DNA of 37,013 nucleotides from a virus. Shown one piece after another: positions 1-37,013 of this stretch (position 1 is its first letter; each line of letters begins with the position of its first letter). The translations under genes were made by a program, and so were the position numbers. The notes beneath the pieces are model-generated. The model searched no databases. It saw nothing but the letters and a program-made list of their open reading frames with translations, and was not told the origin of the DNA. The stretch is taken from the IMG/VR virus record IMGVR_UViG_3300050343_000210, positions 1-37,013 of that record; one strand, given 5' to 3'.

Positions 1-1596
1 CATTATCCTTGCATGGAGAGGGTTATCAGCAGCATCGATCTGCCCTTGGGTCTCCTCATAAAGGGCCATCATTTCTTCATATTGTGCCAAGTCAGCCTCA
101 GCCTGCCGGGGTGTAGGCACACTGGGGTCAAAGGTCATATCACTGGCAAGCTCACCAAAGTCCATGCTCGGTGCAACAAAGGTGGCAAACTCTGACAGGG
201 GGATCTCAACGTATGCGCCCGGGTTTTCCTGCGCGTACCGTAGATTCTCTGCAGTCTCAGGCATGGACTCTTCTAATACTTCAGGATCTATCTCCTGAAA
301 GAAACGCTGCGCCGCATCATCATCGACATGGATAGTATCGACCTTGCCATGCTTCTCCCTGACAGCATTGATAAACTCTTTGAACTTAGAGGGGGCATTC
401 TTGAAGGTAGTGCTCTCACTAACCGCCTCACCCAGTGCTTGGAAGGCAGCCTTTCTTTTCTCAACCTCAGACTTCTGTGATGCAGCACCCGCCGTATCAA
501 CCACACCCGCAGGCAGGCCAAGCACCAAGGCAGTTCGTGTTCCCTGAGACCACGTCTCAAAGATCTGCTCACCAGCAGACTCAGGCATCTTCCCTGTCAG
601 GAGGTACTCACCCGCTATCTGGCTCATCTCTTGAAGGGCTTCAGTGCCACCCTCTACCTGAGAGTTGATCGCGTAGTCTCTGGCAATCTCAGCCGCCCTT
701 GCTCGGAACCGAGGATGACGTAGTAGTTGTTTTACATTCTGCTTCTTCAGGCTGGACAGGAACCTGAACGCGCCTGTCGCCCGGGCAACAGCACTGGCAC
801 CCAAGAACTCCAGTCCACCATTGATTCCACCAACCAGTAGCGCAGCACCCCGTGCTACATTGGGATCGATAGGCTCCCCATCAGGGCCAATGAGGTCAAT
901 GTACTCACGATAGGCAGCACCAGTCTCCATCTCAAACATCTCTTTACCAGCAGCTAACTTCATAACGGCTGCTGTGCCGGGATATCTACCTTTGTTAATC
1001 AAGGTCTCAACAAAAGCAGCGGCGACTGTTGGATAGAAGACCGTGTCCTGCGTCAGGATACTGGAGTACTGACCAGCGAATTCAGCCGCATCGCCCGGGG
1101 CTTTGGATATCCAGTTGAGTCCTGCATCTCGTCCTTCGTATTGCTGGAGCTGTGCATCATACCCGGCCATGCCCTCTAGGTAGGTCTTGGTGTTCTGCCA
1201 CATGGTATTGAAGGAATGGTTACTGGACTCATGGGAGATGTCACCAAACTTAGTGGACTGTGAGATGTCTCTGGTGATGTTATCCAGATAGCTCTCGGTC
1301 TTGGCTAGGCTCTCGATGTCATCCTGAAGCGCAAGCTCATCAGCGTCCAGCAGGATCCCACGGGATACGGAGTCCTCTGGAAGAGTGTCATACAGCCCAC
1401 GGTTTCTGGCATCGCGCTCAATCTGGGCGTAGTTGTCCTCAACGAACTGAACATCCTCCTCACCAGTGATCTTGGCAAGGTGCTCTGCCTTCAGTCTTCT
1501 CTCGGCGTTAACATCCAGAGACATCTGCACATTGTCAGTAAGACGCGCGGCATCTCGCTCCTTGTACTGGGCTGCATACTCTTCAAGCTCATTCAT
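1..1596 (-). CDS. Putative internal virion (ejection) protein, 532 aa, runs to window edge
   Basis: The frame opens at ATG 1596 and stays open to base 1. If the window is circular the next codon (37013-37011) is TAA, giving a complete 532-residue protein. The start overlaps the upstream stop as ATGA and has an AAGGA ribosome site. The protein is helical and charged at the N-terminus. Roughly residues 240-275 form a glycine/alanine-rich hydrophobic stretch (around GAALLVGGINGGLEFLG) that could insert in a membrane. The C-terminal part is acidic. I recognise no catalytic motif. Its place between another large internal-type protein and the 2519-aa polyvalent protein suggests it is packed in the head and ejected with DNA, like T7 gp15/gp16. 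That role is inferred from gene order only. Confidence 0.75.
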   Translation of the reverse strand, partial: MNELEEYAAQYKERDAARLTDNVQMSLDVNAERRLKAEHLAKITGEEDVQFVEDNYAQIERDARNRGLYDTLPEDSVSRGILLDADELALQDDIESLAKTESYLDNITRDISQSTKFGDISHESSNHSFNTMWQNTKTYLEGMAGYDAQLQQYEGRDAGLNWISKAPGDAAEFAGQYSSILTQDTVFYPTVAAAFVETLINKGRYPGTAAVMKLAAGKEMFEMETGAAYREYIDLIGPDGEPIDPNVARGAALLVGGINGGLEFLGASAVARATGAFRFLSSLKKQNVKQLLRHPRFRARAAEIARDYAINSQVEGGTEALQEMSQIAGEYLLTGKMPESAGEQIFETWSQGTRTALVLGLPAGVVDTAGAASQKSEVEKRKAAFQALGEAVSESTTFKNAPSKFKEFINAVREKHGKVDTIHVDDDAAQRFFQEIDPEVLEESMPETAENLRYAQENPGAYVEIPLSEFATFVAPSMDFGELASDMTFDPSVPTPRQAEADLAQYEEMMALYEETQGQIDAADNPLHARIM

Positions 1597-3197
1597 TTTT
1601 TCTTATCCTTCAGATATACACGGTATGCCTTACCATAGGATATAGAGTTAATCGGAGCACCAGTAGCCCGGATCCTGCTTTCTAGTTCCTGCATCACCGC
1701 AGAGGTATTCTTCCCTTCTCTCTCCGCTATCATAGTAAACACATCATCGTAATCTTCAGTAAATGTGAACCCCATATATCGCCCTGTGACGATCTGTTCT
1801 TTCTGTAGCTTGAACTGACTGTTAACAATGACACGGATCTCCTCCGGGGTGGGCTCGGCCCCGCCCTTCTCACTTCGCTTCGCCAAGACAGCAGCATCAA
1901 CAGCAATCCTGAAAGCCTCCTCCCTTTGGAGATCATCTTCCTCGGATGGGTCTATTTGCATTGTCTTAATTTTTCGATCAACAAGAGCTTTGATAGCGTC
2001 AAAGCTGGCTATTGATTCAGGGTTAGCTCTCGCTGTGAGCTTGTCACTAAGCCCTTGCCATGTTGTTTCTCTCAGACTTCCGGTGGCTTCGTTCAGCTCC
2101 TTCAGTAAATCAGCATAAGGAATAGACCTGTCTTCAATTTTATTGTTTAGCTTGGTGTACACCCCGGAGTCATCCTCCTTTGAATACAGACTTGTACCGC
2201 CAGAATCAGTGTAAGACTTCCACATTGCATCAATGCTCTTAACATAGGCAGGGTCTTGGGCATAAGGCTCAGACAAGATGGGGGCGAAGTCCTCGCTCCA
2301 CGTCATATCCATACCCCGGTTCTTCTTGTCCATCACGGTAGACAGGGCAGCAGCCTGCTGTGCCTTGATGTACTTGGTGTTAGACGTACCAAGGTCAGAC
2401 TCCATTCGATCAGCAGCAGTGAGGGCTTTGTCTGCCCACTTGTTGTGCTCTGTGTCATCCCAAGGTGTGCCGGCAACAGTCTCATTATCCTTATGTGTAG
2501 CTGCGTACTCCCTGAGCTTCTCAGGATTCCCCCCGGCTATCAGGGCATCATACTCATCCTGCTGATCCCACAGGTACTCATCATCCTGCAGTTGATCAAT
2601 GAGCTCCTGCTTTGCCGCTTTTGCTTTGGGGGTATCAACCGGGTAGGTGTCCAATGCCTGCCTTGCAGCAGCAGCATTCCTGCTTTCTACCGCTAGGTTG
2701 TATCGATCAACAGACTCCAGAGCCATGTCTTCAATAGCCATTGTCGCAGCTTCCTGAACAGACCGCTCGATCTCAGGGGCAATAGCGTTAAGAGCTTCTT
2801 GTTCCCAGACATTCCTGTGTGCCCCAGAGGATATCGTTGCACCCCGGGCAGCCCGTGAGTCATCAGTGAACTTAGCCAGAGCATGAGTGTAAACCTTCCA
2901 CTTCGGAACAGGGCCAGATGAGACATCAACCTCACCCTCCAGTCCCCATGCCTTGATCTCATCTTCACTAAACTCTCGCCGGGTAGACATCCACTGCTTG
3001 AATTTTGTAATGTCATCAAGGTGATCAGCTTGCGCGTTGTTAACATCATACTCATTCTTGATCTCGTTAACATTGGCTGCCATCTCAGCAAACTGACCAA
3101 TCATCTTGGCCTTTGCCAAGTGAGGCGCAGCGGCCTGCCCGGGGGAAATAGTCTGAGACGGCTGCGCTCGACTGCGCTGTATCTCTGGTAACTTCAT
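1593..3197 (-). CDS. Putative internal virion protein, 534 aa
   Basis: ATG 3197 is preceded by GGAG at a good distance, and the upstream gene stops only about 10 bases before. The protein is highly charged and mostly helical. It has many Asp/Glu/Lys and short heptad-like stretches but no signal peptide, membrane segment or recognisable enzyme motif. Size, composition and position, directly after a gp14-like protein and before another large virion-type gene, match the second internal core protein of T7-like particles (gp15 class). Those proteins form part of the ejected trans-envelope conduit. No sequence motif proves this; it is an inference from synteny. The stop codon TGA overlaps the ATG of the next gene, so the two are translationally coupled. 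Confidence 0.75.
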   Translation of the reverse strand: MKLPEIQRSRAQPSQTISPGQAAAPHLAKAKMIGQFAEMAANVNEIKNEYDVNNAQADHLDDITKFKQWMSTRREFSEDEIKAWGLEGEVDVSSGPVPKWKVYTHALAKFTDDSRAARGATISSGAHRNVWEQEALNAIAPEIERSVQEAATMAIEDMALESVDRYNLAVESRNAAAARQALDTYPVDTPKAKAAKQELIDQLQDDEYLWDQQDEYDALIAGGNPEKLREYAATHKDNETVAGTPWDDTEHNKWADKALTAADRMESDLGTSNTKYIKAQQAAALSTVMDKKNRGMDMTWSEDFAPILSEPYAQDPAYVKSIDAMWKSYTDSGGTSLYSKEDDSGVYTKLNNKIEDRSIPYADLLKELNEATGSLRETTWQGLSDKLTARANPESIASFDAIKALVDRKIKTMQIDPSEEDDLQREEAFRIAVDAAVLAKRSEKGGAEPTPEEIRVIVNSQFKLQKEQIVTGRYMGFTFTEDYDDVFTMIAEREGKNTSAVMQELESRIRATGAPINSISYGKAYRVYLKDKKK

Positions 3198-3207
3198 TAC
3201 TTACTCC

Positions 3208-3672
3208 TTATCCCGGCCCGGGCTTTGTTCCAAGGTAGAACGGATCACCTCCATTAGCGGCAGCGTGTCCTTTGTAGGCTCCATAGCCCTGCGCGACATA
3301 GCCTACAGCACTGCTAAGACCTGAATACAGCGCGGTATCTCCTGCCATCTGGCCGGTCTTAATTGCCATCCGAGCATCCATATTAGCCTTTGCCGTTTCC
3401 CACGCCATCTCCTGCCTGTACTGCTGTTGGTAGCCAGACTTATACCGCTTAGACGAACCAGTCATCTGGATGTTACTGGCAGCGACAGCCGCAGTTATTG
3501 AACCTAGATCATGCTGGAGATCCAACTCTCGCCTGCGTTTATTCTCTTGGGCCGTGCGCTCTATCATATCAGCCTGCATCTCGCCTGCCTTCTCCGCTGC
3601 GTCCTTGCCGTTAATGCCGCCAATAACACTGGTGGCCGCGCCAACTGCCGCTATTCCAACTGCTACCCACAT
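3208..3672 (-). CDS. gp14-like internal virion protein, 154 aa
   Basis: Start ATG 3672 sits behind GGAGGAAGT and overlaps the end of the upstream gene. The N-terminal 20 residues are a Gly/Ala/Val-rich hydrophobic helix (around VGIAAVGAATSVIGG). A charged helical middle follows (AEKAGEMQADMIERT onward), then an Ala/Gly-rich hydrophobic stretch at about residues 115-140. Many podoviruses encode a protein of this shape just before the large internal virion proteins. In T7 the equivalent, gp14, forms an outer-membrane pore during ejection. The call rests on architecture and gene order, since residue-level similarity to T7 gp14 is not visible. It could also be a non-pore core protein. Confidence 0.7.
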   Translation of the reverse strand: MWVAVGIAAVGAATSVIGGINGKDAAEKAGEMQADMIERTAQENKRRRELDLQHDLGSITAAVAASNIQMTGSSKRYKSGYQQQYRQEMAWETAKANMDARMAIKTGQMAGDTALYSGLSSAVGYVAQGYGAYKGHAAANGGDPFYLGTKPGPG

Positions 3673-12261: not shown

Positions 12262-14371
12262 GCAATTCACTCCTAAGCGCAGCAATCTCTGCGCGTAAAT
12301 CTTTTATAGACTCCACCAGCAAAGGCACTACTCGCTCGTAATCTATCGTTAAATAATCAGTGCCGTTGTCTATGTTGATGGGTGCGTCCTTCACCACTTC
12401 TGGCAGGACAGCTTGAACATCCTGTGCGCTAAGGCCGACCCTACGCTCACCGCCTCGGTAGCCCAGTGACTGAGCAACATCATTCCGCTCGTAGTAGAAA
12501 CCTTCCAGAGAACACACCTTGTCCAAGGCATCAGGGATAGTCCCCAAGTGCGTCTTGAGGCGCATGTCTGAGTACCCAGCAGTGAAGTCGCCGGGTGTTG
12601 TGAATGCATTAGCAGTTGTGTTGGCGTTGTAAACTGCTACGCCGTTTAAAGAGCGAACCCAACTAGCATCGGGTTGATACCAACCACCGCCATTTGATAG
12701 CTCTAAGTTGCCAGTGCTTATCTGGACGTTGCCGCTGGAGTCGATTCGCATCTTCTCGGTGCCGCTGGTCGTGGCGTAGTTGGTGCTTGTTGTAAATACA
12801 AGGTTGGTTCCAGCCGCTCCAGCTTCCGTACAGTAAATTCCTGCGCCGTCTATGGGGCCAGTGTTAATCTTAAACCCAAGACCAAAGAATCCATTGGCAG
12901 AGGCAAACCCTCCGCGCAGAGCTAGTACTGTTCCATCCAGTGTTGTGGTTCCCGCATTACCCCAAACATCCAAATTAGCCAGTGGATTATCAGTCCCTAT
13001 ACCAACCGCGCCGCTGGGCTGGATACGCATCTTCTCACCGCCCCCGGTTTGAAAGGTCATCTGGTTGGCACCCTCATTGACAATGTTGAAGGTGCCGTTA
13101 TCTGACGACTGAATGTACGCTGTTCGACCAGAGGCTCCGTCTGAGGCGCGAAAGTCTATCAGGGGGCTGCTGGTGGCCTGTAACCGCAATGGTGAGTTGT
13201 TAGCACCGCCGTCCACATGTAACGGTGCAGTTGGATTATCAGTTCCGATACCAACCGACCCGTCAGCGTAGTTAATACCGCCTGTAACATCGTCCCACTG
13301 AGAGCCGCCACCAGCGTCCAGCAAAGACCAGCCACCGTCCTTTTGCACATACTGCTCACCATCAGCAGGGGCTGCGCCTATCATCACGGCCCATAAACCA
13401 TCATTGCCTTTGAACTGTATATCCCCGTTCTTATTACGGAATCCTGCTGAGGGAGGAACAGCACCACCCTTCTGAGCCATCAACATCTGGCCGCTGTCCG
13501 TCAGGGTGAAGTGGTTTGCTAGACTCCCACCAGCGGGTTTGGTGTAGAAATCAAGCTGTGTGCCGCCATCAGGGTTCGTCACCTCTACGATGGACGTAAG
13601 GCCACCAGAACCGCCACCACCACAGACCGCCAGCAGGTTCGCATACACCGCCTGACACCAATAGTCCTGACCGTCCTGCGTCATGTGCAAATAGTCACTC
13701 AGGTTCGTAGTGACGTAATCCCAAACCTCCGTAATACCCAGAGCCGCCGCAACATTCTTCTGGCCCTGACGGATAACCGATGTACCTTCATCCCATGTAG
13801 GGTCATCAGCAATCAAACCTAAATCGGAATACGGCGATAGCTTTATGATTACCCGATAACCCGCATTCTGGAAGTTAGTCAGCAACGTGGTATACGCTGC
13901 CTCAAATTGAGCCTGAGTAATATCAAACGGCTGGCCGCCGGGAGCAAAACCATTACTACACTCAATGCCACCAGCGTCATTACCGCCCAACGCAATCAGG
14001 GCTATGTCACCCTCACTCGCCGCTGGCACATTGAAAAACTGATACTCAGTACCGGTACGAGCAACTGAGGTTGCAGGAGTGGCATCAACAACGCCATCCA
14101 ACGCAAACCGATTCCACAGCATATGCGCCCAAGATTCCGTGGTGCTGTGCTGCTGGAACGGCTCATCAGTCAGACCCGCAGGAAATACATCGCTCTGCTT
14201 ATCAAACTCAACAGACGTTACCGAACCACCTGACACCCTTGCCCAGAACCAGAACATCGCGCTGTTAGGGCCACGCTGCGAAATGTACACATCGCGTGTC
14301 ATGCCCGAACCACCGTCAACAATCTTCAAATCGGAGACAACACCACTGCCGTTGGTCGAATAGCTGAACTG
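12251..14371 (-). CDS. Tail fibre C-terminal part: SGNH catalytic blocks III/V plus S74 chaperone (frame B)
   Basis: This open frame starts after TGA 14372 and has no convincing start: TTG 14329 lacks a ribosome site. It continues an SGNH/GDSL hydrolase whose nucleophile block lies in the upstream frame. Counted from TTG 14329, block III (GGND, residues 115-118) and block V (DYLH, D212/H215) are present. A glycine linker, phage fibre beta repeats (DGSVGIGTDNPTAPLHV, VGIGTDNPLANLDV) and a C-terminal S74 chaperone (SDMRLKTHLG, GLSAQDVQAVLPE, coiled coil) follow. Joined to the upstream part, the product would be an esterase-bearing receptor-binding fibre, for example a capsule or O-antigen deacetylase. 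See the frameshift finding. Confidence 0.8.
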   Translation of the reverse strand, partial: QFSYSTNGSGVVSDLKIVDGGSGMTRDVYISQRGPNSAMFWFWARVSGGSVTSVEFDKQSDVFPAGLTDEPFQQHSTTESWAHMLWNRFALDGVVDATPATSVARTGTEYQFFNVPAASEGDIALIALGGNDAGGIECSNGFAPGGQPFDITQAQFEAAYTTLLTNFQNAGYRVIIKLSPYSDLGLIADDPTWDEGTSVIRQGQKNVAAALGITEVWDYVTTNLSDYLHMTQDGQDYWCQAVYANLLAVCGGGGSGGLTSIVEVTNPDGGTQLDFYTKPAGGSLANHFTLTDSGQMLMAQKGGAVPPSAGFRNKNGDIQFKGNDGLWAVMIGAAPADGEQYVQKDGGWSLLDAGGGSQWDDVTGGINYADGSVGIGTDNPTAPLHVDGGANNSPLRLQATSSPLIDFRASDGASGRTAYIQSSDNGTFNIVNEGANQMTFQTGGGEKMRIQPSGAVGIGTDNPLANLDVWGNAGTTTLDGTVLALRGGFASANGFFGLGFKINTGPIDGAGIYCTEAGAAGTNLVFTTSTNYATTSGTEKMRIDSSGNVQISTGNLELSNGGGWYQPDASWVRSLNGVAVYNANTTANAFTTPGDFTAGYSDMRLKTHLGTIPDALDKVCSLEGFYYERNDVAQSLGYRGGERRVGLSAQDVQAVLPEVVKDAPINIDNGTDYLTIDYERVVPLLVESIKDLRAEIAALRSELHDN

Positions 14372-14894
14372 TCAACAACCCACCACCATTAGGTGAGGTG
14401 AGTGAATCGCCTACCACATAGATAGACTTGCCCAGCTTTCCGTAAGGCTTGAAGGGGTCTTGCCCATCGTAGGACAGCTTGCCCATCAGGTTGGCACCGC
14501 TGTTCTCTGAGTAAACGCCTGTGTACTCGCCTACGCGCAGTGTGGAGTTATTCTTCCAATCCGTACCGTCCCAAACAACTAACTGGTTATCAGCATCACC
14601 ATTAGGCAGCGCACCTCCTGCTGGGCCTTGTTCACCCTGAGCACCGTCTTGTCCATCTTGGCCCGGCGCTCCGTCTTGGCCGTCTTGCCCCGGTGCTCCA
14701 TCCTGTCCATCTTCACCCGCTGGCCCCGGTGGGCCTTCGGTCATATAATCTAGCTGGCTGTAAGGTCTTACACCGTCACCAATCTTAAACTGGTTGGTAT
14801 CTGTCTCTACCCCAAATTCGCCACGCGCCAATACAGGGTCAACACTCAGCCAGTTGGCCTTGGTGTCGCGCCTCATCTGAATTCTGTCAGCCAC
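14316..14894 (-). CDS. Tail fibre N-terminal part: Mtd_N-like domain, collagen-like repeat, SGNH block I (frame A), 192 aa
   Basis: GTG 14894 overlaps the upstream stop (GTGGCTGA). Residues 1-55 (IQMRRDTKANWLSVDPVLARGEFGVETD, KIGDG) match the N-terminal domain of BPP-1 Mtd-type tail proteins, which attaches to the tail. About 14 Gly-X-Y triplets (PPGPAGEDGQDGAPGQDGQ onward) follow and predict a collagen-like trimer stalk. Near the end stands YVVGDSLTS, SGNH block I with Ser164 as the expected nucleophile. After GGGLLTVQ the frame runs into an unlikely Cys/Trp/Arg tail and stops at 14316. The natural continuation (FSYSTNGSGVV...) is in the next frame. The gene is therefore probably the first part of one frameshifted fibre. 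Confidence 0.8.
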   Translation of the reverse strand: MADRIQMRRDTKANWLSVDPVLARGEFGVETDTNQFKIGDGVRPYSQLDYMTEGPPGPAGEDGQDGAPGQDGQDGAPGQDGQDGAQGEQGPAGGALPNGDADNQLVVWDGTDWKNNSTLRVGEYTGVYSENSGANLMGKLSYDGQDPFKPYGKLGKSIYVVGDSLTSPNGGGLLTVQLFDQRQWCCLRFEDC

Positions 14895-24535: not shown

Positions 24536-24941
24536 GCGGGTTAAAAGTATTAGCCGGGATCAGGTAAACAGGATCCCTTGTCTCCCCCGCCCTATTCCTT
24601 CGCTTCATACCCCAGCTCTTGTAATCAGGGTGAAGCTGAGTCCAATAGAACTTCCCTTTGATCTCGATAAACAACAGGGGTATAGCCATGAACCGGGAAG
24701 CAGCATCCAGAACCCCATTCACCTTGGTCTTATCAATCGCCAGACCCTTCTCCCTGATCATAGGAATCCTGTAGTCCTTCACTCCCTTAACCTCACCACA
24801 GGCCCAGTAGGTATCACCCTTCCAGATGTCCATGTCATAGGGATCCAGCGTAGCTGTCAGCTCTACATCAAACCCAGTGGCTCTCAGGCACGTTGCACAG
24901 CGCCTCTCCCTATCCCTGTCTGCCTCAGTCTCATAAATCAT
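24531..24941 (-). CDS. PD-(D/E)XK-like nuclease (putative), 136 aa
   Basis: ATG 24941 overlaps the end of the methyltransferase gene by a few codons. Near residues 33-56 stand DPYDMDIW and, after a strand, ACGEVKGV. The Asp...E-x-K spacing is that of a PD-(D/E)XK metal-dependent nuclease core. N-terminal EADRDRERRCATCLRA could hold the first acidic residue and includes a CxxC. The C-terminal strand part has FIEIKGKFYW. Candidates are a junction resolvase (none other is obvious beside NinG) or the nuclease of a restriction pair with the overlapping methyltransferase. The short length favours a resolvase or Vsr/VRR-like enzyme. The fold call is from motif only. Confidence 0.58.
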   Translation of the reverse strand: MIYETEADRDRERRCATCLRATGFDVELTATLDPYDMDIWKGDTYWACGEVKGVKDYRIPMIREKGLAIDKTKVNGVLDAASRFMAIPLLFIEIKGKFYWTQLHPDYKSWGMKRRNRAGETRDPVYLIPANTFNPL

Positions 24942-26067
24942 TGAATGCCTCTATCCTTTTCCCTATCCAGCCCATGACTGGCACTGCCATTGAATTACCC
25001 AAAGCCTTATATCTCGGCCCATCCGGGCAGTTATCCACAGGCTTCTTTCGGTACGGTATTTTAGTGTAGGTATCAGGGAATCCCTGTAGCCGCTCACACT
25101 CCATTGGGGTCAGCCGCCTTACTTGATCAGTAGATACAAACGTCTGCTGTTTCATCCCCGGCTGGGCAGACAGCGCCCCTACCTTATCAGTAAGCCTAAC
25201 CTCATCCCGTTGATTCTGGGTGAATGCACCCATCACCCCTGATGCCCTCAAGGTAGGCGATGGATCCCCGGCACACTGGATATCCCCCGCGTTGCCATTG
25301 CTTTGAAACCCAAGGACTCGCACGACATGACCAGAGTCAGTTGTCTGCGTCCCCGCTACAGACTGGGGACTCTTGGTTGTAATAGGCCCAACAGTTAAAT
25401 GCTCACTACCACCCCCAAGATCACCGCCCTTAGCTCTCAAGGTTCCTGCCCCCTCGCGATAACCTCCAATGCTTCCCGGAGTAAAGACGGTATTATCTTC
25501 TCCCGACTTTCTGCTCGGCGCAGGATGCCCTTGCAAGCTGTGGCGCTCAAACAGTACCGCTGCAGGTGGTCGCCAGTCTCCAAGGTATCCAACAACGAAC
25601 ACACGTCTGCGTCTCTGGGCCACTCCGAAGTTTTGAGCGTCAAGAACCCGGTAGGCGAACCCATACCCGAGTTCCCCCAAACCTCCGAGGAAGGATCCAA
25701 AGTCCCGTCCTCCATTCGATGACAGTACGCCGGGGACGTTCTCCCAAACCACCCACTGGGCGCGTTTTCTGTCAGCAAGTTTAAGGAACTCGAGGGCCAA
25801 GTTTCCACGGTCATCATCCATTCCCTTTCTGAGTCCTGCGACTGAGAAGGACTGACAGGGGGTTCCTCCGACAAGAAGGTCAATTGATCCATAATCACTT
25901 TCTCCTATGGTTGTGAAGTCTCCATGTAAAGGTGTGTCAGGGTAATGATGAGCGAGCACAGCCCGGGGGAATGCCTCAATCTCAGAAAAGAATGCAGCCT
26001 CCCAGCCCAATGGCTCCCAAGCCGCGGTAGCAGCCTCGATCCCTGAACATACAGATCCGTATCTCAC
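24931..26067 (-). CDS. DNA (cytosine-5) methyltransferase, 378 aa
   Basis: All main C5-methyltransferase motifs are visible: I (GSVCSGIEAATAAW, SAM binding), the catalytic motif IV GGTPCQSFS with Cys71, VI WENVPG (109-113), VIII QRRRRVFVVG (151-160), a target-recognition region of about 150 residues, and X (RYKALGNSMAVPVMGWIG) near the end. Length of 378 is complete and active-looking. The enzyme methylates C in double-stranded DNA; the target sequence cannot be read from the variable region. GTG 26067 overlaps the Cro-like stop (GTGA). In a phage it usually shields DNA from host restriction. The overlap with a nuclease-like gene leaves open a compact restriction-modification pair. Confidence 0.93.
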   Translation of the reverse strand: MRYGSVCSGIEAATAAWEPLGWEAAFFSEIEAFPRAVLAHHYPDTPLHGDFTTIGESDYGSIDLLVGGTPCQSFSVAGLRKGMDDDRGNLALEFLKLADRKRAQWVVWENVPGVLSSNGGRDFGSFLGGLGELGYGFAYRVLDAQNFGVAQRRRRVFVVGYLGDWRPPAAVLFERHSLQGHPAPSRKSGEDNTVFTPGSIGGYREGAGTLRAKGGDLGGGSEHLTVGPITTKSPQSVAGTQTTDSGHVVRVLGFQSNGNAGDIQCAGDPSPTLRASGVMGAFTQNQRDEVRLTDKVGALSAQPGMKQQTFVSTDQVRRLTPMECERLQGFPDTYTKIPYRKKPVDNCPDGPRYKALGNSMAVPVMGWIGKRIEAFNDL

Positions 26068-27531: not shown

Positions 27532-28065
27532 ATGAAACGGACTTTAATCGCACTGGCATTTTTGTCAGCAAGTACAGCACACGCCACCAGCTACTGGTTG
27601 TTTGGCGACTCACTATCATCAGACGCAGGGGCATGGTCTAGCAAAGTGGATTTTCACATCAACAACTCAGCTCAGGCGGGTAGCATGATTACCCAGTCTG
27701 ATATACCCAGACAGGTATCGTGCGCTAGGAGAGATGTCATCTACTGGCTAGGCACCAATGACGCCGGGAGAGGGGTTGATAAGGTGCTGTACCAGCAGGC
27801 GCTACGCGACCACCTGCAGTTTCTGAAGGGCAGGGGTTGCAAGGTCTGGATGGTATTGCCTGTCGTAGTAACGCTATCACCTGAACATGAGCAGCGTACA
27901 AAAGACGCACGACAGTGGTCAAAGGCGGTCGCCAAGGACTACAGCAATGTCACTGTCCTGTCTGCACCGTACCTGACCGCCGACACCAGCGATGGACTGC
28001 ACCCAACTGACAGCCGCCACGGGATAATTGCCCGGTGGATAACCAAGAAACTGGAGGCGAAGTAA
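27532..28065 (+). CDS. Secreted SGNH/GDSL hydrolase, 177 aa
   Basis: A signal peptide (residues 1-18, cut after AHA) predicts export to the periplasm. The mature protein has all SGNH blocks: I FGDSLS with Ser27, II around Gly50 (NNSAQAGSM), III GTND (74-77) and V DGLH (D154/H157). This completes a Ser-Asp-His triad for ester hydrolysis. Length is short but whole for the family, as in TesA-like enzymes. Likely substrates are acylated or acetylated envelope glycans or lipids. With no endolysin visible in the genome, a role in envelope breakdown or in removing receptor acetyl groups to block superinfection can be considered. An ATG overlap (TAATG) couples it to the next gene. Confidence 0.85.
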   Translation: MKRTLIALAFLSASTAHATSYWLFGDSLSSDAGAWSSKVDFHINNSAQAGSMITQSDIPRQVSCARRDVIYWLGTNDAGRGVDKVLYQQALRDHLQFLKGRGCKVWMVLPVVVTLSPEHEQRTKDARQWSKAVAKDYSNVTVLSAPYLTADTSDGLHPTDSRHGIIARWITKKLEAK

Positions 28066-29156: not shown

Positions 29157-29455
29157 GCTATGACAATTCAAAACAAGTAATTATGAGGAAGGTGGTAGCG
29201 GATAATCCAACCCCCACCACCCCTGTGTTAAGCGTTGAGTGGACTGATAAGCAGGGAGTCAAGCAGACTGCCGCCTTGTGGGAGTGGACTCGCAAAGATG
29301 GCTCACCAGTGCTGGATAAGCACGGAAACAAGATGTATCAGGGCAATTACAAGGAAGACACCTATGCCCAAGAGCAGGGCGACAAGGGCATGGAGCAAGC
29401 CCGGGCCGCCGCAGCCCCGGCTGTTAGCTTTGAGGATGACGATATCCCGTTCTAG
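29153..29455 (+). CDS. Small ssDNA-binding-type protein with SSB-like acidic tail, 100 aa
   Basis: The chain has a beta-rich front (KQVIMRKVVADNPTPTTPVLSVEWTDKQGVKQTAALWEWTR), a polar middle (KHGNKMYQGNYKEDTY) and a tail of Ala/Pro ending FEDDDIPF. That ending copies the conserved C-terminal tip of bacterial SSB (DDDIPF), which recruits SSB partners. The body may be a minimal OB-like domain, but this is not provable by eye. Coupled to the annealing protein, it likely coats ssDNA or links the annealer to the host replication and repair machinery. Its stop codon is part of CTAG shared with the opposite gene. Confidence 0.72.
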   Translation: MSYDNSKQVIMRKVVADNPTPTTPVLSVEWTDKQGVKQTAALWEWTRKDGSPVLDKHGNKMYQGNYKEDTYAQEQGDKGMEQARAAAAPAVSFEDDDIPF

Positions 29456-32400
29456 TCCAGACCCTCCAGTCTCTCCTCATACGGAACCCCGGTGAGGAGG
29501 GACTCTATCTTATCCGACCACTCCTCCTGAGTTAACGCATCGACTACCTCCAGTACCGCCCTGAAGGGCAGGTGAGTCACCACTGTTAGCGAACTCGCTA
29601 TGTTATACGCCGCAGAGGAAGTCAGGTCTTCTGTTGTCAGAGCTCTCTTTGCGCTACCAAATAGCTTGGCGTAGGGGCTGTTGACATCAAATCCACTGGC
29701 CGCACTCACCGCATCCCTGACCAAGGGGATACCAAAAGTCGATGTGCCAATCACATTCTTGAGATAGGTGAGCATGAACTCCTCTTCATTCTCCTCATCA
29801 TCCCCAAAGACAACCTGATCCAGTAAAGAGGATGCCAAGACATACCAGCCAAAGGTGTTAGCAAACCGCATCATAGACTTGGCCCGGGAGTTTGGCCCCT
29901 CACCCCGGATGAAGCCACGCAGCAGATCCTGCCTGCCAGTCATCTCAAGGTGATTGTAGACAACGATCCCCCAAGTAATAAACATGGTCGAGGCTTTAAC
30001 CAGCTCACCCTCGGCCTGCTGTATACCCGCAAGATCCTTCAGTCCTCCACCAGACTGCGACTGACGGACAACAGCGTCAGCGTAGTTAGTAGCTTCCTTT
30101 CCTACCAGCCCCTCAGCCACGGCCTTATCATGGGCAGCCAGCCATGTAATAGCATTGACCTGCTTCTGAACAAAGACAATGAACTGAAATGAATTCGCCT
30201 TCAGGAAGTCCCAGCCATCAATGACCTTCCCCACCCCCGGGCGAGAGACCGATACATTGGACAAGTTTCCTTTCGATATCTCACGGATGTCCCTGTCTAA
30301 TTGGAGGCTCATGTTCCTCAGCTCTGGACTGTTATCCAAAGCAGTCTGGTACATACTGCCGGGGTGGTCTCTGCGGAACGTCCCCGCCTCAGCAACAAAC
30401 CCAAGCAGCACCCTTGCTGTACGAGTAGCACCCACCTCCGCGGCAGTAGAGGCAATACCCAGCGTCTGTTTGACAGCACCTACAATGTCCCAGCCAAGGG
30501 CGACCATTGAATACCCTGCCCTGACATGACTGTGAATATCATTCCAAGTATTCGTAGCAGCATGAGAGGTACTGGAGACCCTGCCATCTGTCGCTATATT
30601 CTGAACCCATGACCTCAATTGCTTGCGCCCGGCCTCACCGAAATACTTTGTATACATCTCAGCAAAATCAGTACGCAAACGCAGCTTATCGAACCGTCTC
30701 ACCGCCTCGTAGTGAGTGATGTAGTGGATAGTCTGGTTGATATGGCTACCGAAATTACTAAACGATAAATCTATCTTCCCCTGCGGAGTCCCCAGTGCCC
30801 GGCTTTGGGTCATCGACTTACTCACCTGACCCGTCATGGGGGATGGCCCCATCTCCACTGTCTTGAACTCAGCAGTCGCCTGCTTCTCTGGGGTGCCGGC
30901 GACATCCTTATACTTCACCGGGTAATACCAACCCGACAGGGTGACACCGTACTTATTTAGATACAGGGGCCGGGACTCAACCTTGGGAGGGATAACACCG
31001 TCAACCTTTTCAGAGACCCTCGCCAGCTCAGGGTAGAAAGAGTCAGTTAGCTGACCCAGTGCCTCAATCCTATAGAAGTCCTCAAGAGTCAGGTGCTCCT
31101 GCAGCTCCTCCATCAGGGTGGCGTAGTCCCAGCTATAACCATTAAGCAATCGGTTGAGGTTGCCCTCATTACCCATGTTCAGGGCTACGACATACAGATC
31201 CCCGACAGTGACATTATCAAAGCCCATGAAGGTGCGCTTGCTGAACAACCGAACAGCATCCTCCTTTGTCATGTCGCCCATGATCTCTTTAACCCTGACA
31301 TCAACCGCATTTAACCTTGTGTCCCGGGCATTCTGTGCATCAACAAAGGGCTGGAAGATAACCTTGCTCCACATCCCACCAATGCCGCCATCAGCCTCTC
31401 GAGCATTAAACTCCACCTTCTTCAGGCTGGCACCAAAGTCCCTGATAGTCCGACCCAATCGATCAAGCCTGCCATTGGGTTCTACCAGTAGTTCCTTCCT
31501 TTTCTTGGCAGTAATGTTGAGACCCGCTACTCGATCCAGCTCCTCAACAATAATCTCCACACCAACGGATCCAAACTCCTCGGTGTATCTGTCATTCAGT
31601 CGGCCTTCTTTCTCCCAGACCTTCACCTGATCCCTGACATCGAGCAGCTCATTGAGCGTCATCTCTTTCCAGTTCTTATCCCCGGCGTACAAAGAGGGGT
31701 CAATCAGCACAACCTCGCCCTCCTGCTCCATCTGCTTTACAGCACCCTTCAGCATGTTACGCAGGTCTATCTTCTTGAGCGATGTCTTCTTGAAGTCGAG
31801 CGCAGCCAGCAGGGTATCAATAGCCCTTGCCTTATCTGGATCATTCTTTCTCCACAGCATAGCCCGGGGCTTGCCCTTGTCATCGAGATACTTTCTTGCC
31901 TTCTCAGCCTCAGTGACAGCCTTACGAGCCTCACGGTACAGGTGGTGATTCAGTAGCTGTTTGCGCTTGGCTACCAGAAACGCCGGGGTATCATCCTTGG
32001 ACAGGGCAATCTGCGCTTCCTTTGCAGCCCTCTGTTCAGCCTGATAGTACTTGTGTGCTGTAATATCCCTGACCAGCATACGGCTGATTATATTTTGAGC
32101 AGCAAGACGAGCCTCTGCAGCCAGAGTCTTCTTAACCTGACCTCCTATCTTCCGGGTAGCAGCATTGGCCTCAGCCACCAGCAGGGCGCTGGTCTTATTG
32201 TTATGCACAGACAGTGCGGCCTGATCAAATATCTCAGTGTCTGTCTTTAGGTTACCAAACTCCTCATCCAGCTTGGCCTGAACCCGGGTCTTGATCTCCT
32301 TGGATCTGGCAGGTGCTTTGATGATCTCCTGTATCATGGACACGGTAGAGCCAAATCCATAGTGATCAGCCAGCGCACTGGGGGATACACCATCCTTCTG

Positions 32401-35400
32401 GTACAGGCCAACAATACGCCTGAGTACAGATGAGTCACCGCCAAACGCCCTGACAATATCAGCAGAGTTTAACCGCCTGCCATCAATCCCATCCGGGGTG
32501 GGACGGCTCTTGTCCTCACCGTTCCTGATCAAATTTTGTACAGCGTAGACAGGCTCCTGATCAATCTCGTCACCGACATCAACCATGAGTTGCTTCTTCC
32601 GCGCCTGATATTCCTTGCGCTTGGTTGCGGCCAGATCCTTTCTTATCTGCTCCTGCACCTCATCAAGCCCGGCTTGGGTGGCCTCGGCATGAAGTTTCTC
32701 CAGTCTCTTTTGTGTCACCTCATCAAACGATGAGTAATCCATCTCCGGGTTAACATCACCAGAGGCAGACTCAACCGCAGCATCCCCCGCCAGCATACGA
32801 TCAAACACCCCACGGATCTCATCCGACAGGGGTGCATCGAGTTTAGATAGACTGCTGTAGACAGACTTCATCCACTCCTTCATCCGCTTAAACATCCCAT
32901 CCATATCAGGGGCCGGAGACCTCCCTTCATAGAAGTAAGCCTCCAGAGATCTGGCAAAGAGCTCATGTTGCTCAGTAGTGAACGCGCCATTAACCCGCTC
33001 ACCCGGGGCATTGGCCTCAAGGTACGCAGTGATTCTGGCAAAGTCCTCAACCATCTCAGGGGGTGCTATACCTGCCAGTACATCAGCCTGTATCAGCTCC
33101 AGTTGAAGGTGGCCCATCTCATGGATAAAGGTGGAGAGATTTGCATTCTTGGTCAGGGTGATCCGATAGGAACCCTCACCGATATCAAGATAACCTGCAG
33201 TAGTTTTGCCCTTGGCCTGCATCACCCTCTGGGTCCCGGTGTATGCCTTCTCGATATTAATCTGGTCTTCATTCCAGATCACATAGTTGTAGGTGTATCC
33301 CCCTGACTTGTTCCTCGTATTGCCATCACGGTATCGGAGGCCCGGGATACCAAGGCTATTCAGGTACAGACTGGCAATCTTATCTGCTCTTTCGTTGGTC
33401 AACCCATTGGCTTCAGCCCAATCAGAAACAATAGGCGATTCACTAAGGCTGTCATAGAACGACCTCCCAGACTGATCTTCGTTCTTACTGGGAAGAACAT
33501 TCGCCGAAAGACCATGAAAACTGAAGAGACTATCAAAGACCTCCTTATCATAGGCCAGTGCCGCCTCAACTTCAGACAGATTTTTGGAATGAAACGAATC
33601 ATCAGGCAGGTCAACAATATAGTCCCCTTCAGTATCTAGGGTGATGACCAGCTCATTGGGGTAGATAAGAACCTGCTCCGTTCCGTCTGGCATATAGTAA
33701 TTAAGCTCAGACTCAGCCTCATCTACAGTCAGGATTCTAGGCTCACCACCAAGAATCTCAAGAGGAGTAGCAGGAATCATGGCAGCAAAATACCGCCCCC
33801 TACTTTCCACAAACCGGGCATAGTCAGACACTGCCTCCATCAAAAGCGGGGTTCCAGAAGGATTTTTTTCATACCACTTGACCGCTTCTTTCCTTGCCTC
33901 ATCCTGAATATCAATCGCAAGAGTGTGCATCTCCCGGGCGGCAGCTCTGGCCTCCACCGTCCTCCATGACTTGATGTCCTTTGATGGAGCCGTGCGCCCT
34001 AGATCATCCAGATCCGTATTCAGGAACTGCATCAATCCACTGATCTCCTCAGACAAGCGGCCCATGAGATCACCTATCTTTGGGCTAGAAGCATCGATCT
34101 CAGTTGCAGAGTGTTGATTAAACAGGTCACCGAGAATACCCTCCAGAAGGTCAAACTCCTCAGTCATCACCTCCAGCGTCTCAGCCATCTCATCAGAGAG
34201 AACACCTGCATCCCTGATAGCCTTCCGCACAAACTCAGGCTGCTTATCAAGACTCGTATCGTAGTACAGTAGGTGGGTGTCTTCAGGCACATCAACCTGA
34301 TAGGTGTAGGGATTGACCCCTGACTCCTCAACATCAGGGAGGCGCTTGCTAGCATCATTAAAGGCATTGCTGATATGGATATTAACCGTCTGTCTTATTG
34401 AGTCGGCCTGATCCTCAAGGATCCTAATCCTCTCCAGATCCTTGATGTGTTGCTCCGGGTTTGTTTTCTCTGTGTCAAAGGTGTTTCGCCTGATCTCAGC
34501 AAACTCATCCTCAATCGCAACAACCTTGGTTATTTTTTCATAAACAGACCGATCATCAAGCCAGTTGAAGAAAGCATCATGCACCACATCACTAGCAGTA
34601 CCATCAAAGAAGTGATCAAGATTGCTGTCCCAGTATTGCTCAATATAGTTTTCAGCATGACTTGGATCCAGCCAAGGCCCACCTGTATTATCCATCCATC
34701 GGGTCGATCTAACATCTGCCCAGATGTCATTCATTAATTTTTCAAACTCAGCATCAGTCCAGTCAGACTGATTTACATTAGACCTGCCGCGGCCCTTTGC
34801 TCTCATCATGTTGTCTCTATACCACTTGGCTGTACTCAAGCGGCCACCAAAGTACATGCCCCAGCCATAGACTTGAGCGCCTTCCCCGGTGTTTATGTAT
34901 TTGAGACTGAAGTTTTCGTAGGGCTTTGGACTGGCCGCACCATGATAGACGGACTGGTAGAGGGTTCGTACCGGGATCAGATCAGCTTCGGCAACTTCAA
35001 TAACCCCTTGTTTATCTTCGCCATGCGCTTGGCTTCGCGTTGCTGGGACTTGGCGATCCGGAGTCGTTGTTTGTCCGATAGGATTCCCTTCATTGACTGA
35101 CTCTCCATCGCGGATTGTTGCAAGTATTGCGCTATATCTAGCATCGTCTATCGCTCCTGATTCTTTTAGTTTCTCAAGAGATGACAGGAACTCCCCCATC
35201 ACATTGTCTTGAGCTGGCTTCTCTTTCTTGTTGGCCTCTAACTGATTGACCTCAGTCTGTCGATCACCACGGAAACAACCAGCACTCCCGTAGAGGTCAC
35301 AGCTTGTGCAAGTCCACTCGCCCTTTTGAAGCGATGGGTATGCAGTATTCTTTTTCGGGATGTCCAGCTTGCCGCTATCAACAGGGCATAGCTCCCGGCG

Positions 35401-37011
35401 CATCAGCTCATAGACATCCGGGTACATCACCTTCAGCTCTGCATGAGTGATCTGCTTGTTACCCAGTTTTACTGGGAGCCAGACAGCAACCCTGTCGGCA
35501 TTGGCCTTGATCCAGTCCTGCGTAAAGCCATCGTTAATAACAACAGCCAGATCAAAGTCTTTGTTCTGCTCTGCTAGATGTAGATTGGTATCATCAACAG
35601 ATAACATCCTGAGATTCGTTGCGTCCGTCTGCGCCAACAACTCAGGGCGCTTGGAGAATATCTGGATCCTGATGCCTTTATCGTTCAATCTCTTGACAAT
35701 GTCAATCTGAGCAAGGGACAGCTCACCCTTCTCATTGATCCTCAAAGCCAGCCCTCCCTGTGCCGGGGCAGACCCTTCAAACTGAAGCGCAATAGAATCA
35801 GCCAGTAACTCAGGGTTCATCTCAGCCATGAACTCAGTGAACTCAACAGCCATCAGGGAGTTGTTATAGCTTGTCCCCCGGGCAGCATAGCAATGGGTAG
35901 CACAGGCCAGACTGGGGCTGCAGTTAACATAGCTTCCGCTGAAGTCCTGCTCTGCTTTTCGGTTTCCACCTATGAACTTATAACCTGTGGCGAACAGCTC
36001 TATCCCTGCCTTACCACGCATGAGCGCCTCGCCCATACCACCAGCAGCCAGAGACCGCTTGCCCCACATAGCAAGGCTCAGTAGGGCTTCAGGGTTAGTA
36101 CCCTCCCACGCCTGATACATGGCCTCCCTGATAACCATTCCCTTCACAGCAGACGCAGCCCACGCTGTGCCGGCGAACTCATTCAGGTTGGCTCTCACTC
36201 GCTCAGATTCTTCTGGTGTCACCCTCGATAAATAGGACTCAACCGCCTCAGCAGCCAGAGGCTCATAGGTCTTCAGGTTATTCAGATCACCAACAGACTC
36301 CCACTTGGTTAATTCTTGAGCAAGTCTCCTCCCGGTGGATTGATTGAATGCGTGTAGCCCCAGTGCGTCCATTGCCTCGGCATTGGTTGTTTGATCCAGA
36401 TCGATACCTTTGGACCGGAGCATTCCCTCCAAGTGATCGAGCGCAACACTGAGATCCATATCCTCCTGAGACTCAAGCCCGGGGACATAGGCTCTGTTGC
36501 CCTGTAGCTCTTGGTCGATCAAAGCCAGTACTGCATCACCCTCGCCTGCAGCCTCACCGATGTCAGGCAGGTAGCCGGCATCCCTAGCCAGCTCATAGGC
36601 CGACTCCATACTGATGCCGCCCTCTTTAGCCAGTACTCGGCCAGCGTAGTCAGGCATTGCCTTGCCAAGATCCCGGCCAGACATCTCGCTATCAAGCTCA
36701 ACGCCGCCCTGAGATATCAGGAACTCAATCAGGGAAGGCCCAAAGATATCCTTCTGTGTTGGCCCCTTGCCTGCGCGGAGAAGGTTCATCAGTCCACCGT
36801 AATAAGAGGGGACATCCTGCTCACCAAACTTGGTCTCCATCTCCCCCTTGATGCTGATGTTTTTTGATCGGAAGTAATCATAGGGATCCATGCCCTTGGT
36901 TCCATCAGGCATCACAATAGCATTGGCCTGCATGGTAATAACCCTAGTGGCAAAGTCAGCCTCCTCAATAGCCACCGCCTCATCACGACCAGCCAGTATA
37001 AGGTCGGTCAT
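29452..37011 (-). CDS. Giant polyvalent virion protein with ART-like and zincin-like regions, 2519 aa
   Basis: ATG 37011 is the last codon in the window; the ribosome site AAGGA is supplied by bases 5-9 of the other end. Visible regions in order: ~360-580, Cys-rich GP88-like (C364/C370/C374, C542, C568/C571/C579); ~685-1250, ADP-ribosyltransferase-like with SVYHG (H690), GWGMYF and the closing GLRYRDG...YNYVIWNEDQ; ~1295-1305, FIHEMGHLQL (H1297, E1298, H1301), an HExxH zinc peptidase motif; ~1400-1900, charged coiled coils; C-terminal ~370 residues, LPD38-like with AEGELVKASTMFITWG. Such polyvalent proteins are packed in virions and delivered with DNA to act on the host. Which reactions this one performs is not proven. 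Confidence 0.85.
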   Translation of the reverse strand: MTDLILAGRDEAVAIEEADFATRVITMQANAIVMPDGTKGMDPYDYFRSKNISIKGEMETKFGEQDVPSYYGGLMNLLRAGKGPTQKDIFGPSLIEFLISQGGVELDSEMSGRDLGKAMPDYAGRVLAKEGGISMESAYELARDAGYLPDIGEAAGEGDAVLALIDQELQGNRAYVPGLESQEDMDLSVALDHLEGMLRSKGIDLDQTTNAEAMDALGLHAFNQSTGRRLAQELTKWESVGDLNNLKTYEPLAAEAVESYLSRVTPEESERVRANLNEFAGTAWAASAVKGMVIREAMYQAWEGTNPEALLSLAMWGKRSLAAGGMGEALMRGKAGIELFATGYKFIGGNRKAEQDFSGSYVNCSPSLACATHCYAARGTSYNNSLMAVEFTEFMAEMNPELLADSIALQFEGSAPAQGGLALRINEKGELSLAQIDIVKRLNDKGIRIQIFSKRPELLAQTDATNLRMLSVDDTNLHLAEQNKDFDLAVVINDGFTQDWIKANADRVAVWLPVKLGNKQITHAELKVMYPDVYELMRRELCPVDSGKLDIPKKNTAYPSLQKGEWTCTSCDLYGSAGCFRGDRQTEVNQLEANKKEKPAQDNVMGEFLSSLEKLKESGAIDDARYSAILATIRDGESVNEGNPIGQTTTPDRQVPATRSQAHGEDKQGVIEVAEADLIPVRTLYQSVYHGAASPKPYENFSLKYINTGEGAQVYGWGMYFGGRLSTAKWYRDNMMRAKGRGRSNVNQSDWTDAEFEKLMNDIWADVRSTRWMDNTGGPWLDPSHAENYIEQYWDSNLDHFFDGTASDVVHDAFFNWLDDRSVYEKITKVVAIEDEFAEIRRNTFDTEKTNPEQHIKDLERIRILEDQADSIRQTVNIHISNAFNDASKRLPDVEESGVNPYTYQVDVPEDTHLLYYDTSLDKQPEFVRKAIRDAGVLSDEMAETLEVMTEEFDLLEGILGDLFNQHSATEIDASSPKIGDLMGRLSEEISGLMQFLNTDLDDLGRTAPSKDIKSWRTVEARAAAREMHTLAIDIQDEARKEAVKWYEKNPSGTPLLMEAVSDYARFVESRGRYFAAMIPATPLEILGGEPRILTVDEAESELNYYMPDGTEQVLIYPNELVITLDTEGDYIVDLPDDSFHSKNLSEVEAALAYDKEVFDSLFSFHGLSANVLPSKNEDQSGRSFYDSLSESPIVSDWAEANGLTNERADKIASLYLNSLGIPGLRYRDGNTRNKSGGYTYNYVIWNEDQINIEKAYTGTQRVMQAKGKTTAGYLDIGEGSYRITLTKNANLSTFIHEMGHLQLELIQADVLAGIAPPEMVEDFARITAYLEANAPGERVNGAFTTEQHELFARSLEAYFYEGRSPAPDMDGMFKRMKEWMKSVYSSLSKLDAPLSDEIRGVFDRMLAGDAAVESASGDVNPEMDYSSFDEVTQKRLEKLHAEATQAGLDEVQEQIRKDLAATKRKEYQARKKQLMVDVGDEIDQEPVYAVQNLIRNGEDKSRPTPDGIDGRRLNSADIVRAFGGDSSVLRRIVGLYQKDGVSPSALADHYGFGSTVSMIQEIIKAPARSKEIKTRVQAKLDEEFGNLKTDTEIFDQAALSVHNNKTSALLVAEANAATRKIGGQVKKTLAAEARLAAQNIISRMLVRDITAHKYYQAEQRAAKEAQIALSKDDTPAFLVAKRKQLLNHHLYREARKAVTEAEKARKYLDDKGKPRAMLWRKNDPDKARAIDTLLAALDFKKTSLKKIDLRNMLKGAVKQMEQEGEVVLIDPSLYAGDKNWKEMTLNELLDVRDQVKVWEKEGRLNDRYTEEFGSVGVEIIVEELDRVAGLNITAKKRKELLVEPNGRLDRLGRTIRDFGASLKKVEFNAREADGGIGGMWSKVIFQPFVDAQNARDTRLNAVDVRVKEIMGDMTKEDAVRLFSKRTFMGFDNVTVGDLYVVALNMGNEGNLNRLLNGYSWDYATLMEELQEHLTLEDFYRIEALGQLTDSFYPELARVSEKVDGVIPPKVESRPLYLNKYGVTLSGWYYPVKYKDVAGTPEKQATAEFKTVEMGPSPMTGQVSKSMTQSRALGTPQGKIDLSFSNFGSHINQTIHYITHYEAVRRFDKLRLRTDFAEMYTKYFGEAGRKQLRSWVQNIATDGRVSSTSHAATNTWNDIHSHVRAGYSMVALGWDIVGAVKQTLGIASTAAEVGATRTARVLLGFVAEAGTFRRDHPGSMYQTALDNSPELRNMSLQLDRDIREISKGNLSNVSVSRPGVGKVIDGWDFLKANSFQFIVFVQKQVNAITWLAAHDKAVAEGLVGKEATNYADAVVRQSQSGGGLKDLAGIQQAEGELVKASTMFITWGIVVYNHLEMTGRQDLLRGFIRGEGPNSRAKSMMRFANTFGWYVLASSLLDQVVFGDDEENEEEFMLTYLKNVIGTSTFGIPLVRDAVSAASGFDVNSPYAKLFGSAKRALTTEDLTSSAAYNIASSLTVVTHLPFRAVLEVVDALTQEEWSDKIESLLTGVPYEERLEGLD

Positions 37012-37013
37012 TA

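What the first reader, a model, noticed from the sequence alone, without database searches (positions are those of the whole stretch)
29452..37011. 2519-residue polyvalent protein: Cys-rich GP88-like + ART-like + HExxH + LPD38-like
The order of regions suggests a multi-effector delivered with the DNA. A possible metal or iron-sulphur region, an ADP-ribosyltransferase-like domain interrupted by a large helical insert between its first motifs (H690, GWGMYF) and its last strand (about residue 1242), a zinc peptidase motif, long coiled coils and an LPD38-type end follow one another. The peptidase could process the polyprotein itself. The joining of a GP88-like region to ART and peptidase in one virion protein looks unusual to me. 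It takes 20% of the genome.
Basis: partly seen in the sequence, partly recalled or inferred. Interest (0 to 1): 0.75.

Follow-up and report, generated by a model that had tools for sequence, protein, structure and literature searches.

The report
Phage injection protein with swappable enzyme cargo
This is most of one very large phage protein that is probably injected into the host with the viral DNA; between two conserved ends it carries a cargo section that differs from phage to phage, and here the cargo is an ADP-ribosylating domain plus a cysteine-rich domain predicted to fold like radical-SAM enzymes, which I did not find described as part of injected phage proteins.

Summary
The ORF is real (minus strand, 29452-37011, 2519 codons) but is only about 83% of its gene. 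The contig ends share CATTA; with one copy, ORF 1-1596(-) joins it in frame into 3050 residues, and relatives align unbroken across the join. It belongs to the BPP-1 Bbp10 family, encoded next to internal-virion genes. The family has a conserved N-module, a HExxH zincin plus a C-tail of nearly constant length, and between them a slot of 19 to 2181 residues. The closest relative (43-44% identity) has an empty slot; here about 1036 residues carry (1) a Cys-rich domain distantly homologous to Pfam GP88 and (2) an ADP-ribosyltransferase with a large helical insert. GP88-like, ART and HExxH are confirmed. LPD38 is not supported. The Cys domain recurs in giant phage ORFs with seven invariant cysteines, models as a (beta/alpha)6 partial barrel (pLDDT 83), and its best PDB fold matches are radical-SAM enzymes (viperin Z 9.5), with CX5CX3C after strand 1. 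This suggests an ejected Fe-S/radical-SAM-like effector, which I found in no paper searched. Activity, virion presence and cleavage are untested; this ART has Asn where most relatives have the third catalytic Asp.

The parts
29452..37011 (-). Residues 532-3050 of the giant gene (P0001, 2519 aa); the first Met here is internal
1..1596 (-). First 531 residues of the same gene, cut by the contig end
   Evidence: (PHROG 9880 hits both ORFs)
37009..37013 (.). CATTA, repeated at 1-5: residual terminal overlap of a circular or circularly permuted genome
36304..37011 (-). Conserved N-module, second part (first part about 1-999)
33196..36303 (-). Cargo slot, about 1036 residues (P0001 237-1272), absent from the 43-44% identical relative L014
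35242..35994 (-). GP88-related, radical-SAM-like Cys-rich domain (P0001 about 340-590)
35890..35922 (-). C364-X5-C370-X3-C374-YA motif after strand 1
35719..35742 (-). RINEKGEL after strand 2 (family consensus ALRLxDKGDL), placed like the radical-SAM GGE motif (inferred)
35275..35388 (-). Second Cys set C542, C568, C571, C579: auxiliary Fe-S cluster or zinc ribbon
34777..34974 (-). ART block 1, YH690G...EGAQVYGWGMYF
34207..34320 (-). ART block 2, YQVDVPEDTHLLYYDTSLDKQPEFVRKAI
33466..34206 (-). Helical insert of about 225-245 residues inside the ART domain
33244..33465 (-). ART block 3, GIPGLRYRDG...YNYVIWNED; Asn1247 stands where most relatives have Asp
32812..33204 (-). Zincin (MPTase) domain, HEMGH at P0001 1297-1301 and downstream HE..A...E.Y
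29455..32811 (-). Conserved, mostly helical C-module; residues after HExxH nearly constant in relatives (1172-1287, n=72)
1593..3197 (-). Upstream gene, 534 aa, in the ejection/internal-virion position (structural lysozyme in relatives)
   Evidence: position, inferred
3208..3672 (-). Small internal virion protein candidate, 154 aa
   Evidence: phrog_805, weak; position

Best explanation
The locus encodes a roughly 3050-residue ejection protein of a BPP-1-like short-tailed phage. A conserved N-module and a conserved zincin plus C-module form a chassis that is packaged and ejected before or with the DNA, much as the giant N4 virion RNA polymerase is. Between them is a slot for interchangeable effector domains. 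Here the slot holds a GP88-related, probably Fe-S-binding, radical-SAM-like domain and an ADP-ribosyltransferase with a helical insert. In the host the zincin may cut the chain to free the cargo, and the two enzymes would modify host molecules or blunt defences before phage genes are expressed. Shown: the gene split by the contig ends, family membership, empty versus filled slots, ART, zincin and GP88 homology, seven invariant cysteines, a predicted partial barrel closest to radical-SAM enzymes. Inferred: ejection, cleavage, catalysis, targets.
For: Join. Genomic context beside internal virion proteins/structural lysozyme and tail fibres in relatives. Slot: in 72 complete relatives the HExxH position varies 676-3039 (sd 432) while the tail length is 1172-1287 (sd 19.7); slot size 19-2181 residues in 54 relatives, 19 of them <=40; cargo in 40 slots includes ART-PolyVal (11), PBECR5 nuclease (7), GNAT (6), MuF_C (4), LPD23, LPD3, PBECR3, RadC. 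Cys domain. ART. Zincin; Bbp10 700-1000 was already placed with zincin-like CLCA_X proteins (PMC3650047). N4 vRNAP, a giant ejection protein with an HExxH domain followed by a large helical domain: PMC12633501.
Against: No virion proteomics. Foldseek against the PDB is not significant for the Cys domain (best E 0.059); the radical-SAM link rests on VIA-align Z up to 9.5, the Cys position and the order of elements. CX5CX3C is not the canonical CX3CX2C. The second Cys set also resembles the L37Ae zinc ribbon (E 0.017), so zinc is possible. This copy departs from the family at the loop after strand 2 (INEKGEL against xDKGDL), and its ART has Asn at the third catalytic position, so either enzyme could be impaired. 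The ART+zincin model was poor and its fold searches uninformative. Relatives were sampled by similarity, so slot statistics are not a census.
Confidence: 0.66

Rival explanations
1. The chassis is mainly a structural ejection channel/motor component (like T7 gp16); the slot domains are passengers with little function, some decayed.
For: Many relatives have an empty slot, so cargo is dispensable; ART Asn1247 and the altered loop after strand 2 in this copy; one Endozoicomonas homologue (L316) has an in-frame stop.
Against: Seven cysteines invariant in 37 diverse copies and an intact, recognisable ART (E 1e-43); most filled slots carry known effector enzyme families.
Confidence: 0.2
2. The Cys-rich domain is a zinc/Fe-S structural or nucleic-acid-binding module on a TIM-like scaffold, not a radical-SAM enzyme.
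For: Non-canonical Cys spacing; C-terminal four Cys align weakly with the L37Ae zinc ribbon; no significant Foldseek PDB match.
Against: The leading PDB matches by VIA-align are radical-SAM enzymes, viperin Z 9.5 over 200 residues, other barrels about 6; Cys triad directly after strand 1; viral fold matches include GP88, Gp37/Gp68-like and radical-SAM proteins.
Confidence: 0.35
3. It is a lysis protein (lysin), as Bbp10-like genes are annotated in some phage records.
For: Records call relatives lysis protein, lysin or crystallin beta/gamma motif protein (PMC9239159).
Against: No muralytic domain found in this protein; size, position and cargo fit an ejection protein; in relatives a lysozyme sits in the neighbouring gene.
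Confidence: 0.05
4. The two ORFs are genuinely separate genes overlapping at TAATG.
For: The record as it stands gives TAA/ATG overlap if both CATTA copies are kept.
Against: Relatives encode one chain across the join; one copy of the terminal repeat gives a perfect in-frame fusion.
Confidence: 0.05

Closest known systems
Bordetella phage BPP-1 Bbp10 family (PHROG 9880; Cobetia Carin1 gp32, Pseudomonas AF_016, OANV1 gp16)
   Same: Same N-module, zincin and C-module, same gene neighbourhood, single long chain
   Different: The slot content differs; Bbp10 has PBECR1 just before its zincin, this one GP88-like + ART
Polyvalent proteins of phages and conjugative elements (Iyer et al. 2017, PMC5512222)
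   Same: Multidomain, MPTase, ART, LPD-type domains, proposed delivery with DNA
   Different: GP88 or radical-SAM is not mentioned in that paper's main text; a fixed slot in a constant chassis was not found described in the passages read
Pfam PF17338 GP88
   Same: Cys motif CX5CX3CYA, order of conserved motifs, fold
   Different: Typical GP88s found here are standalone of about 250 aa; the polyvalent form lacks the HDxGD signature and has a four-Cys C-terminal part
Radical-SAM enzymes (viperin, QueE, TYW1, spore photoproduct lyase)
   Same: Predicted (beta/alpha)6 barrel, three-Cys loop after strand 1
   Different: CX5CX3C instead of CX3CX2C; about 10% identity; no activity known
N4 virion RNA polymerase (PMC12633501)
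   Same: Giant ejection protein with HExxH domain followed by a large helical domain
   Different: No sequence relation detected (no PDB hit); RNA polymerase instead of slot effectors
ART-PolyVal (PF18760)
   Same: YHG and GWGxYF motifs, last strand NYVxF
   Different: About 225-residue helical insert; Asn at the third catalytic position

Membership tests
Bbp10-like giant phage proteins | Conserved N-module, zincin and C-module in one chain | tested here: met
Polyvalent proteins | Several effector domains plus MPTase in one phage protein | tested here: met
Polyvalent proteins | Delivered into the host with the DNA | not testable with these tools
   inferred from gene position
GP88 (PF17338) | Pfam score at or above the curated cut-off | tested here: not met
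   15.7 bits against 24.4 for the window piece; relatives hit to 1.3e-8. Filed as a distant relative, not a member
GP88 (PF17338) | Cys motif and profile-profile similarity to bona fide GP88 | tested here: met
   Prob 95.6 E 1e-8; the Cys motif was part of the retrieval, but similarity covers 135 columns, and one search recovered the family with non-Cys patterns
Radical SAM superfamily | CX3CX2C cluster motif | tested here: not met
   motif is CX5CX3C in all 37 copies; non-canonical spacings exist in some radical-SAM enzymes (own knowledge). Said to fold like one, not filed as a member
Radical SAM superfamily | (beta/alpha)6 partial barrel | tested here: met
   (predicted model)
Radical SAM superfamily | [4Fe-4S] cluster and SAM cleavage | not testable with these tools
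   none
ART-PolyVal (H-Y-D clade) | Sequence profile of the domain | tested here: met
   E 1e-43 with a model of relatives that hit PF18760
ART-PolyVal (H-Y-D clade) | Catalytic His, Tyr and Asp | tested here: inconclusive
   His690 and the Tyr of GMYF present; Asn1247 at the aligned Asp, also Asn or Ser in some relatives
ART fold | Fold by structure prediction | tested here: inconclusive
   low-confidence model
Zincin MPTase | HExxH helix and a downstream helix with Glu | tested here: met
   HExxH 70/70 and Glu of HE..A...E.Y 70/70 in relatives; helices predicted
Zincin MPTase | Peptidase activity | not testable with these tools
   none
LPD38 (PF18857) | Pfam hit in the C-terminus | tested here: not met
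   C-terminal 516 aa, E<=10; 20 relatives, E<=0.01
LPD22 (PF18834) | Pfam hit in the N-terminus | tested here: not met
   no hit in this ORF pair at E<=1, although 18 of 20 chassis relatives hit

The most novel reading that the evidence does not exclude
GP88 and its polyvalent relative are a phage-borne branch of radical-SAM-type enzymes with a CX5CX3C cluster, and the polyvalent form is ejected from virions as an early effector, loaded into a dedicated cargo slot of a conserved ejection-protein chassis and possibly released by the adjacent zincin.
Probability: 0.38. Interest if true: 0.82.

Novelty: new variant of a known kind. Interest (0 to 1): 0.63.

Why it matters
Polyvalent proteins are known, but this gives two testable additions: a constant ejection-protein chassis with one slot that gains and loses effectors between related phages, which offers a place to look for anti-host or anti-defence enzymes by simple comparison; and a widespread seven-Cys, radical-SAM-like domain among those effectors. 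A radical-SAM enzyme carried into a cell in an oxygen-exposed virion would be surprising, and it would give the uncharacterised GP88 family a concrete biochemical hypothesis.

Tried and rejected
Direct HMM and PDB searches of the whole ORF: nothing. Single-sequence scans for close relatives of the N-terminal/GP88/ART parts in viral contigs: none. tblastn of the GP88 part in phages: none. A first Cys DNA pattern had a frame error and was useless. Mycobacteriophage accessions for GP88 were not held. A genome scan with true GP88 plus window found no close relative. Mixed ART/zincin alignments misplaced fragments and were replaced by A13. Its model was low confidence and the fold searches listed mostly coiled coils. 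N4 vRNAP homology of the C-module: no PDB hit. Lysin and separate-genes readings rejected as stated under rivals.

Full report
1. The ORF and the gene. The frame 29452-37011 lies on the minus strand and has 2519 codons. It starts two bases from the end of the record, and ORF 1-1596(-) runs off the other end. PHROG 9880, a 2231-residue profile, matches the second ORF at profile 322-589 and this one at 928-2201. The two ends of the record both read CATTA; keeping one copy fuses the ORFs in frame to 3050 residues. Alignments to Cobetia phage Carin1 gp32 (213-742), PfDIW6 (359-748), SAC (393-749) and L014 (6-767) run through residue 531 without a break. The finding therefore describes about 83% of one gene.

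2. The family. tblastn finds 44 phage records, all below 60% identity, including BPP-1 Bbp10, Pseudomonas AF, Xanthomonas CP2, Vibrio and Caulobacter phages. In the records viewed the gene lies downstream of internal virion proteins or a structural lysozyme and mostly just upstream of tail spikes or fibres. A scan with the core alignment found 568 relatives in viral contigs and kept 80.

3. The slot. In 72 complete relatives the position of HExxH ranges 676-3039 (sd 432), while the length after it is 1172-1287 (sd 19.7). Between the end of the N-module and the zincin, 54 measurable relatives have 19-2181 residues; 19 have 40 or fewer. L014/L015, the closest relatives (43% and 44% over the two flanks), have an empty slot; the window has about 1036 residues there. 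Pfam scans of 40 slots give ART-PolyVal (11), PBECR5 (7), DUF7178 (6), GNAT (6), MuF_C (4), LPD23, LPD3, DUF3293, LPD5, PBECR3, LPD1, RadC and others. The sample was drawn by similarity and is not a census.

4. The Cys-rich domain. The window piece hits PF17338 GP88 first but below cut-off (E 0.014). A DNA pattern for CX5CX3CYAxxGT retrieved 111 ORFs, nearly all standalone, of which four tested are clear GP88. A pattern for NCxPxxxCxxxCYA retrieved 46 ORFs, 45 carrying the motif in the conserved context; at least 31 of them match the window domain at E 1e-37 or better (listing cut), mostly inside giant ORFs. A later scan with patterns not involving the cysteines found largely the same contigs and a few more, and a scan of bacterial genomes gave four. 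Across 37 sequences seven cysteines are invariant. Profile-profile comparison with GP88 gives Prob 95.6 and E 1.1e-8 over 135 columns; 9 of 14 giant relatives hit GP88 directly, best 1.3e-8.

5. Fold. AlphaFold2 with 37 sequences gives pLDDT 82.8, pTM 0.78 and an alternating strand-helix pattern of a partial barrel. Foldseek against the PDB is not significant (best E 0.059). VIA-align on Foldseek's candidates puts radical-SAM enzymes at the top: viperin Z 9.5 (200 aligned, 3.9 A), QueE 8.2, TYW1 7.9, spore photoproduct lyase 7.7, PFL-activating enzyme 7.7, MoaA 7.4, with other barrels at about 6.3 and below. Against viral models the hits are GP88-domain proteins (E 1e-18 and 2e-4), a Gp37/Gp68-like protein and further radical-SAM proteins at weak E. 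The Cys triad follows strand 1 and the conserved [DN]KG[DE] loop follows strand 2, where radical-SAM enzymes carry the cluster and SAM-binding motifs (placement is my inference). The four later cysteines may bind an auxiliary cluster or zinc (L37Ae-like, E 0.017). No paper found here links GP88 or polyvalent proteins to radical SAM; the library lacks many subscription papers.

6. ART. A model built from eight relatives without the window hits P0001 640-1275 at E 1.4e-43 against 999 shuffles, in two blocks with about 225 unmatched residues between. The relatives used hit PF18760. His690 and the GMYF Tyr are present; the residue aligned with the third catalytic Asp is Asn1247, which is Asn or Ser in some relatives too. 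Activity is uncertain.

7. Zincin and C-module. HExxH and the downstream Glu are present in 70 of 70 relatives, and the window fits that profile at E 1.3e-51. Bbp10 700-1000 was placed with zincin-like CLCA_X proteins in 2013 (PMC3650047). LPD38 is not found; LPD22 is found in 18 of 20 relatives, at the N-terminus in the three whose hit position was seen.

8. Mechanism. By analogy with N4 vRNAP, a giant ejected protein with an HExxH domain and a large helical C-terminal domain (PMC12633501), and with the polyvalent-protein model (PMC5512222), I propose that the chassis is ejected and that slot enzymes act early in infection, perhaps after cutting by the zincin. The combination is recurrent: 29 sampled ORFs carry the Cys domain plus the Bbp10-type core, and L252/L295 have Cys domain, ART and zincin in the window's order (several loci come from the same contigs). 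None of the catalytic or delivery steps is shown.

Noticed in passing
12251-14329 and 14316-14894, minus strand: Two overlapping ORFs look like parts of one collagen-like/SGNH/S74-type tail fibre whose frame is interrupted between them; seen by eye.
   Followed up: no
4667-7219, minus strand: 850-aa fibre protein with several internal repeats (ADGVFATNGGVGASNL..KGRLLQVGDFGI) and a Peptidase_S74 chaperone domain.
   Followed up: partly
27532-28065, plus strand: Possible secreted SGNH/GDSL-type hydrolase (signal peptide, GDSLS) by eye.
   Followed up: no
24931-26067, minus strand: Probable DNA cytosine methyltransferase by eye.
   Followed up: no
L304 ORF, 6985 aa: Very large phage ORF with the Cys domain at 3320-3676 and the zincin core at 5442-5609.
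   Followed up: no
L006 (Rhodobacteraceae phage MD07): Giant protein annotated methyltransferase in which the ART follows the zincin instead of preceding it.
   Followed up: partly
L009 (plasmid Rms163): About 4800-aa plasmid protein with many partial or complete ART-like repeats.
   Followed up: no
L316:9613-10365: Endozoicomonas genome copy of the Cys domain is interrupted by an in-frame stop.
   Followed up: no
L098-L216: GP88 (PF17338) is very common in viral contigs as a standalone protein of about 250 aa with CX5CX3CYAxxGT; it may share the radical-SAM-like fold.
   Followed up: partly
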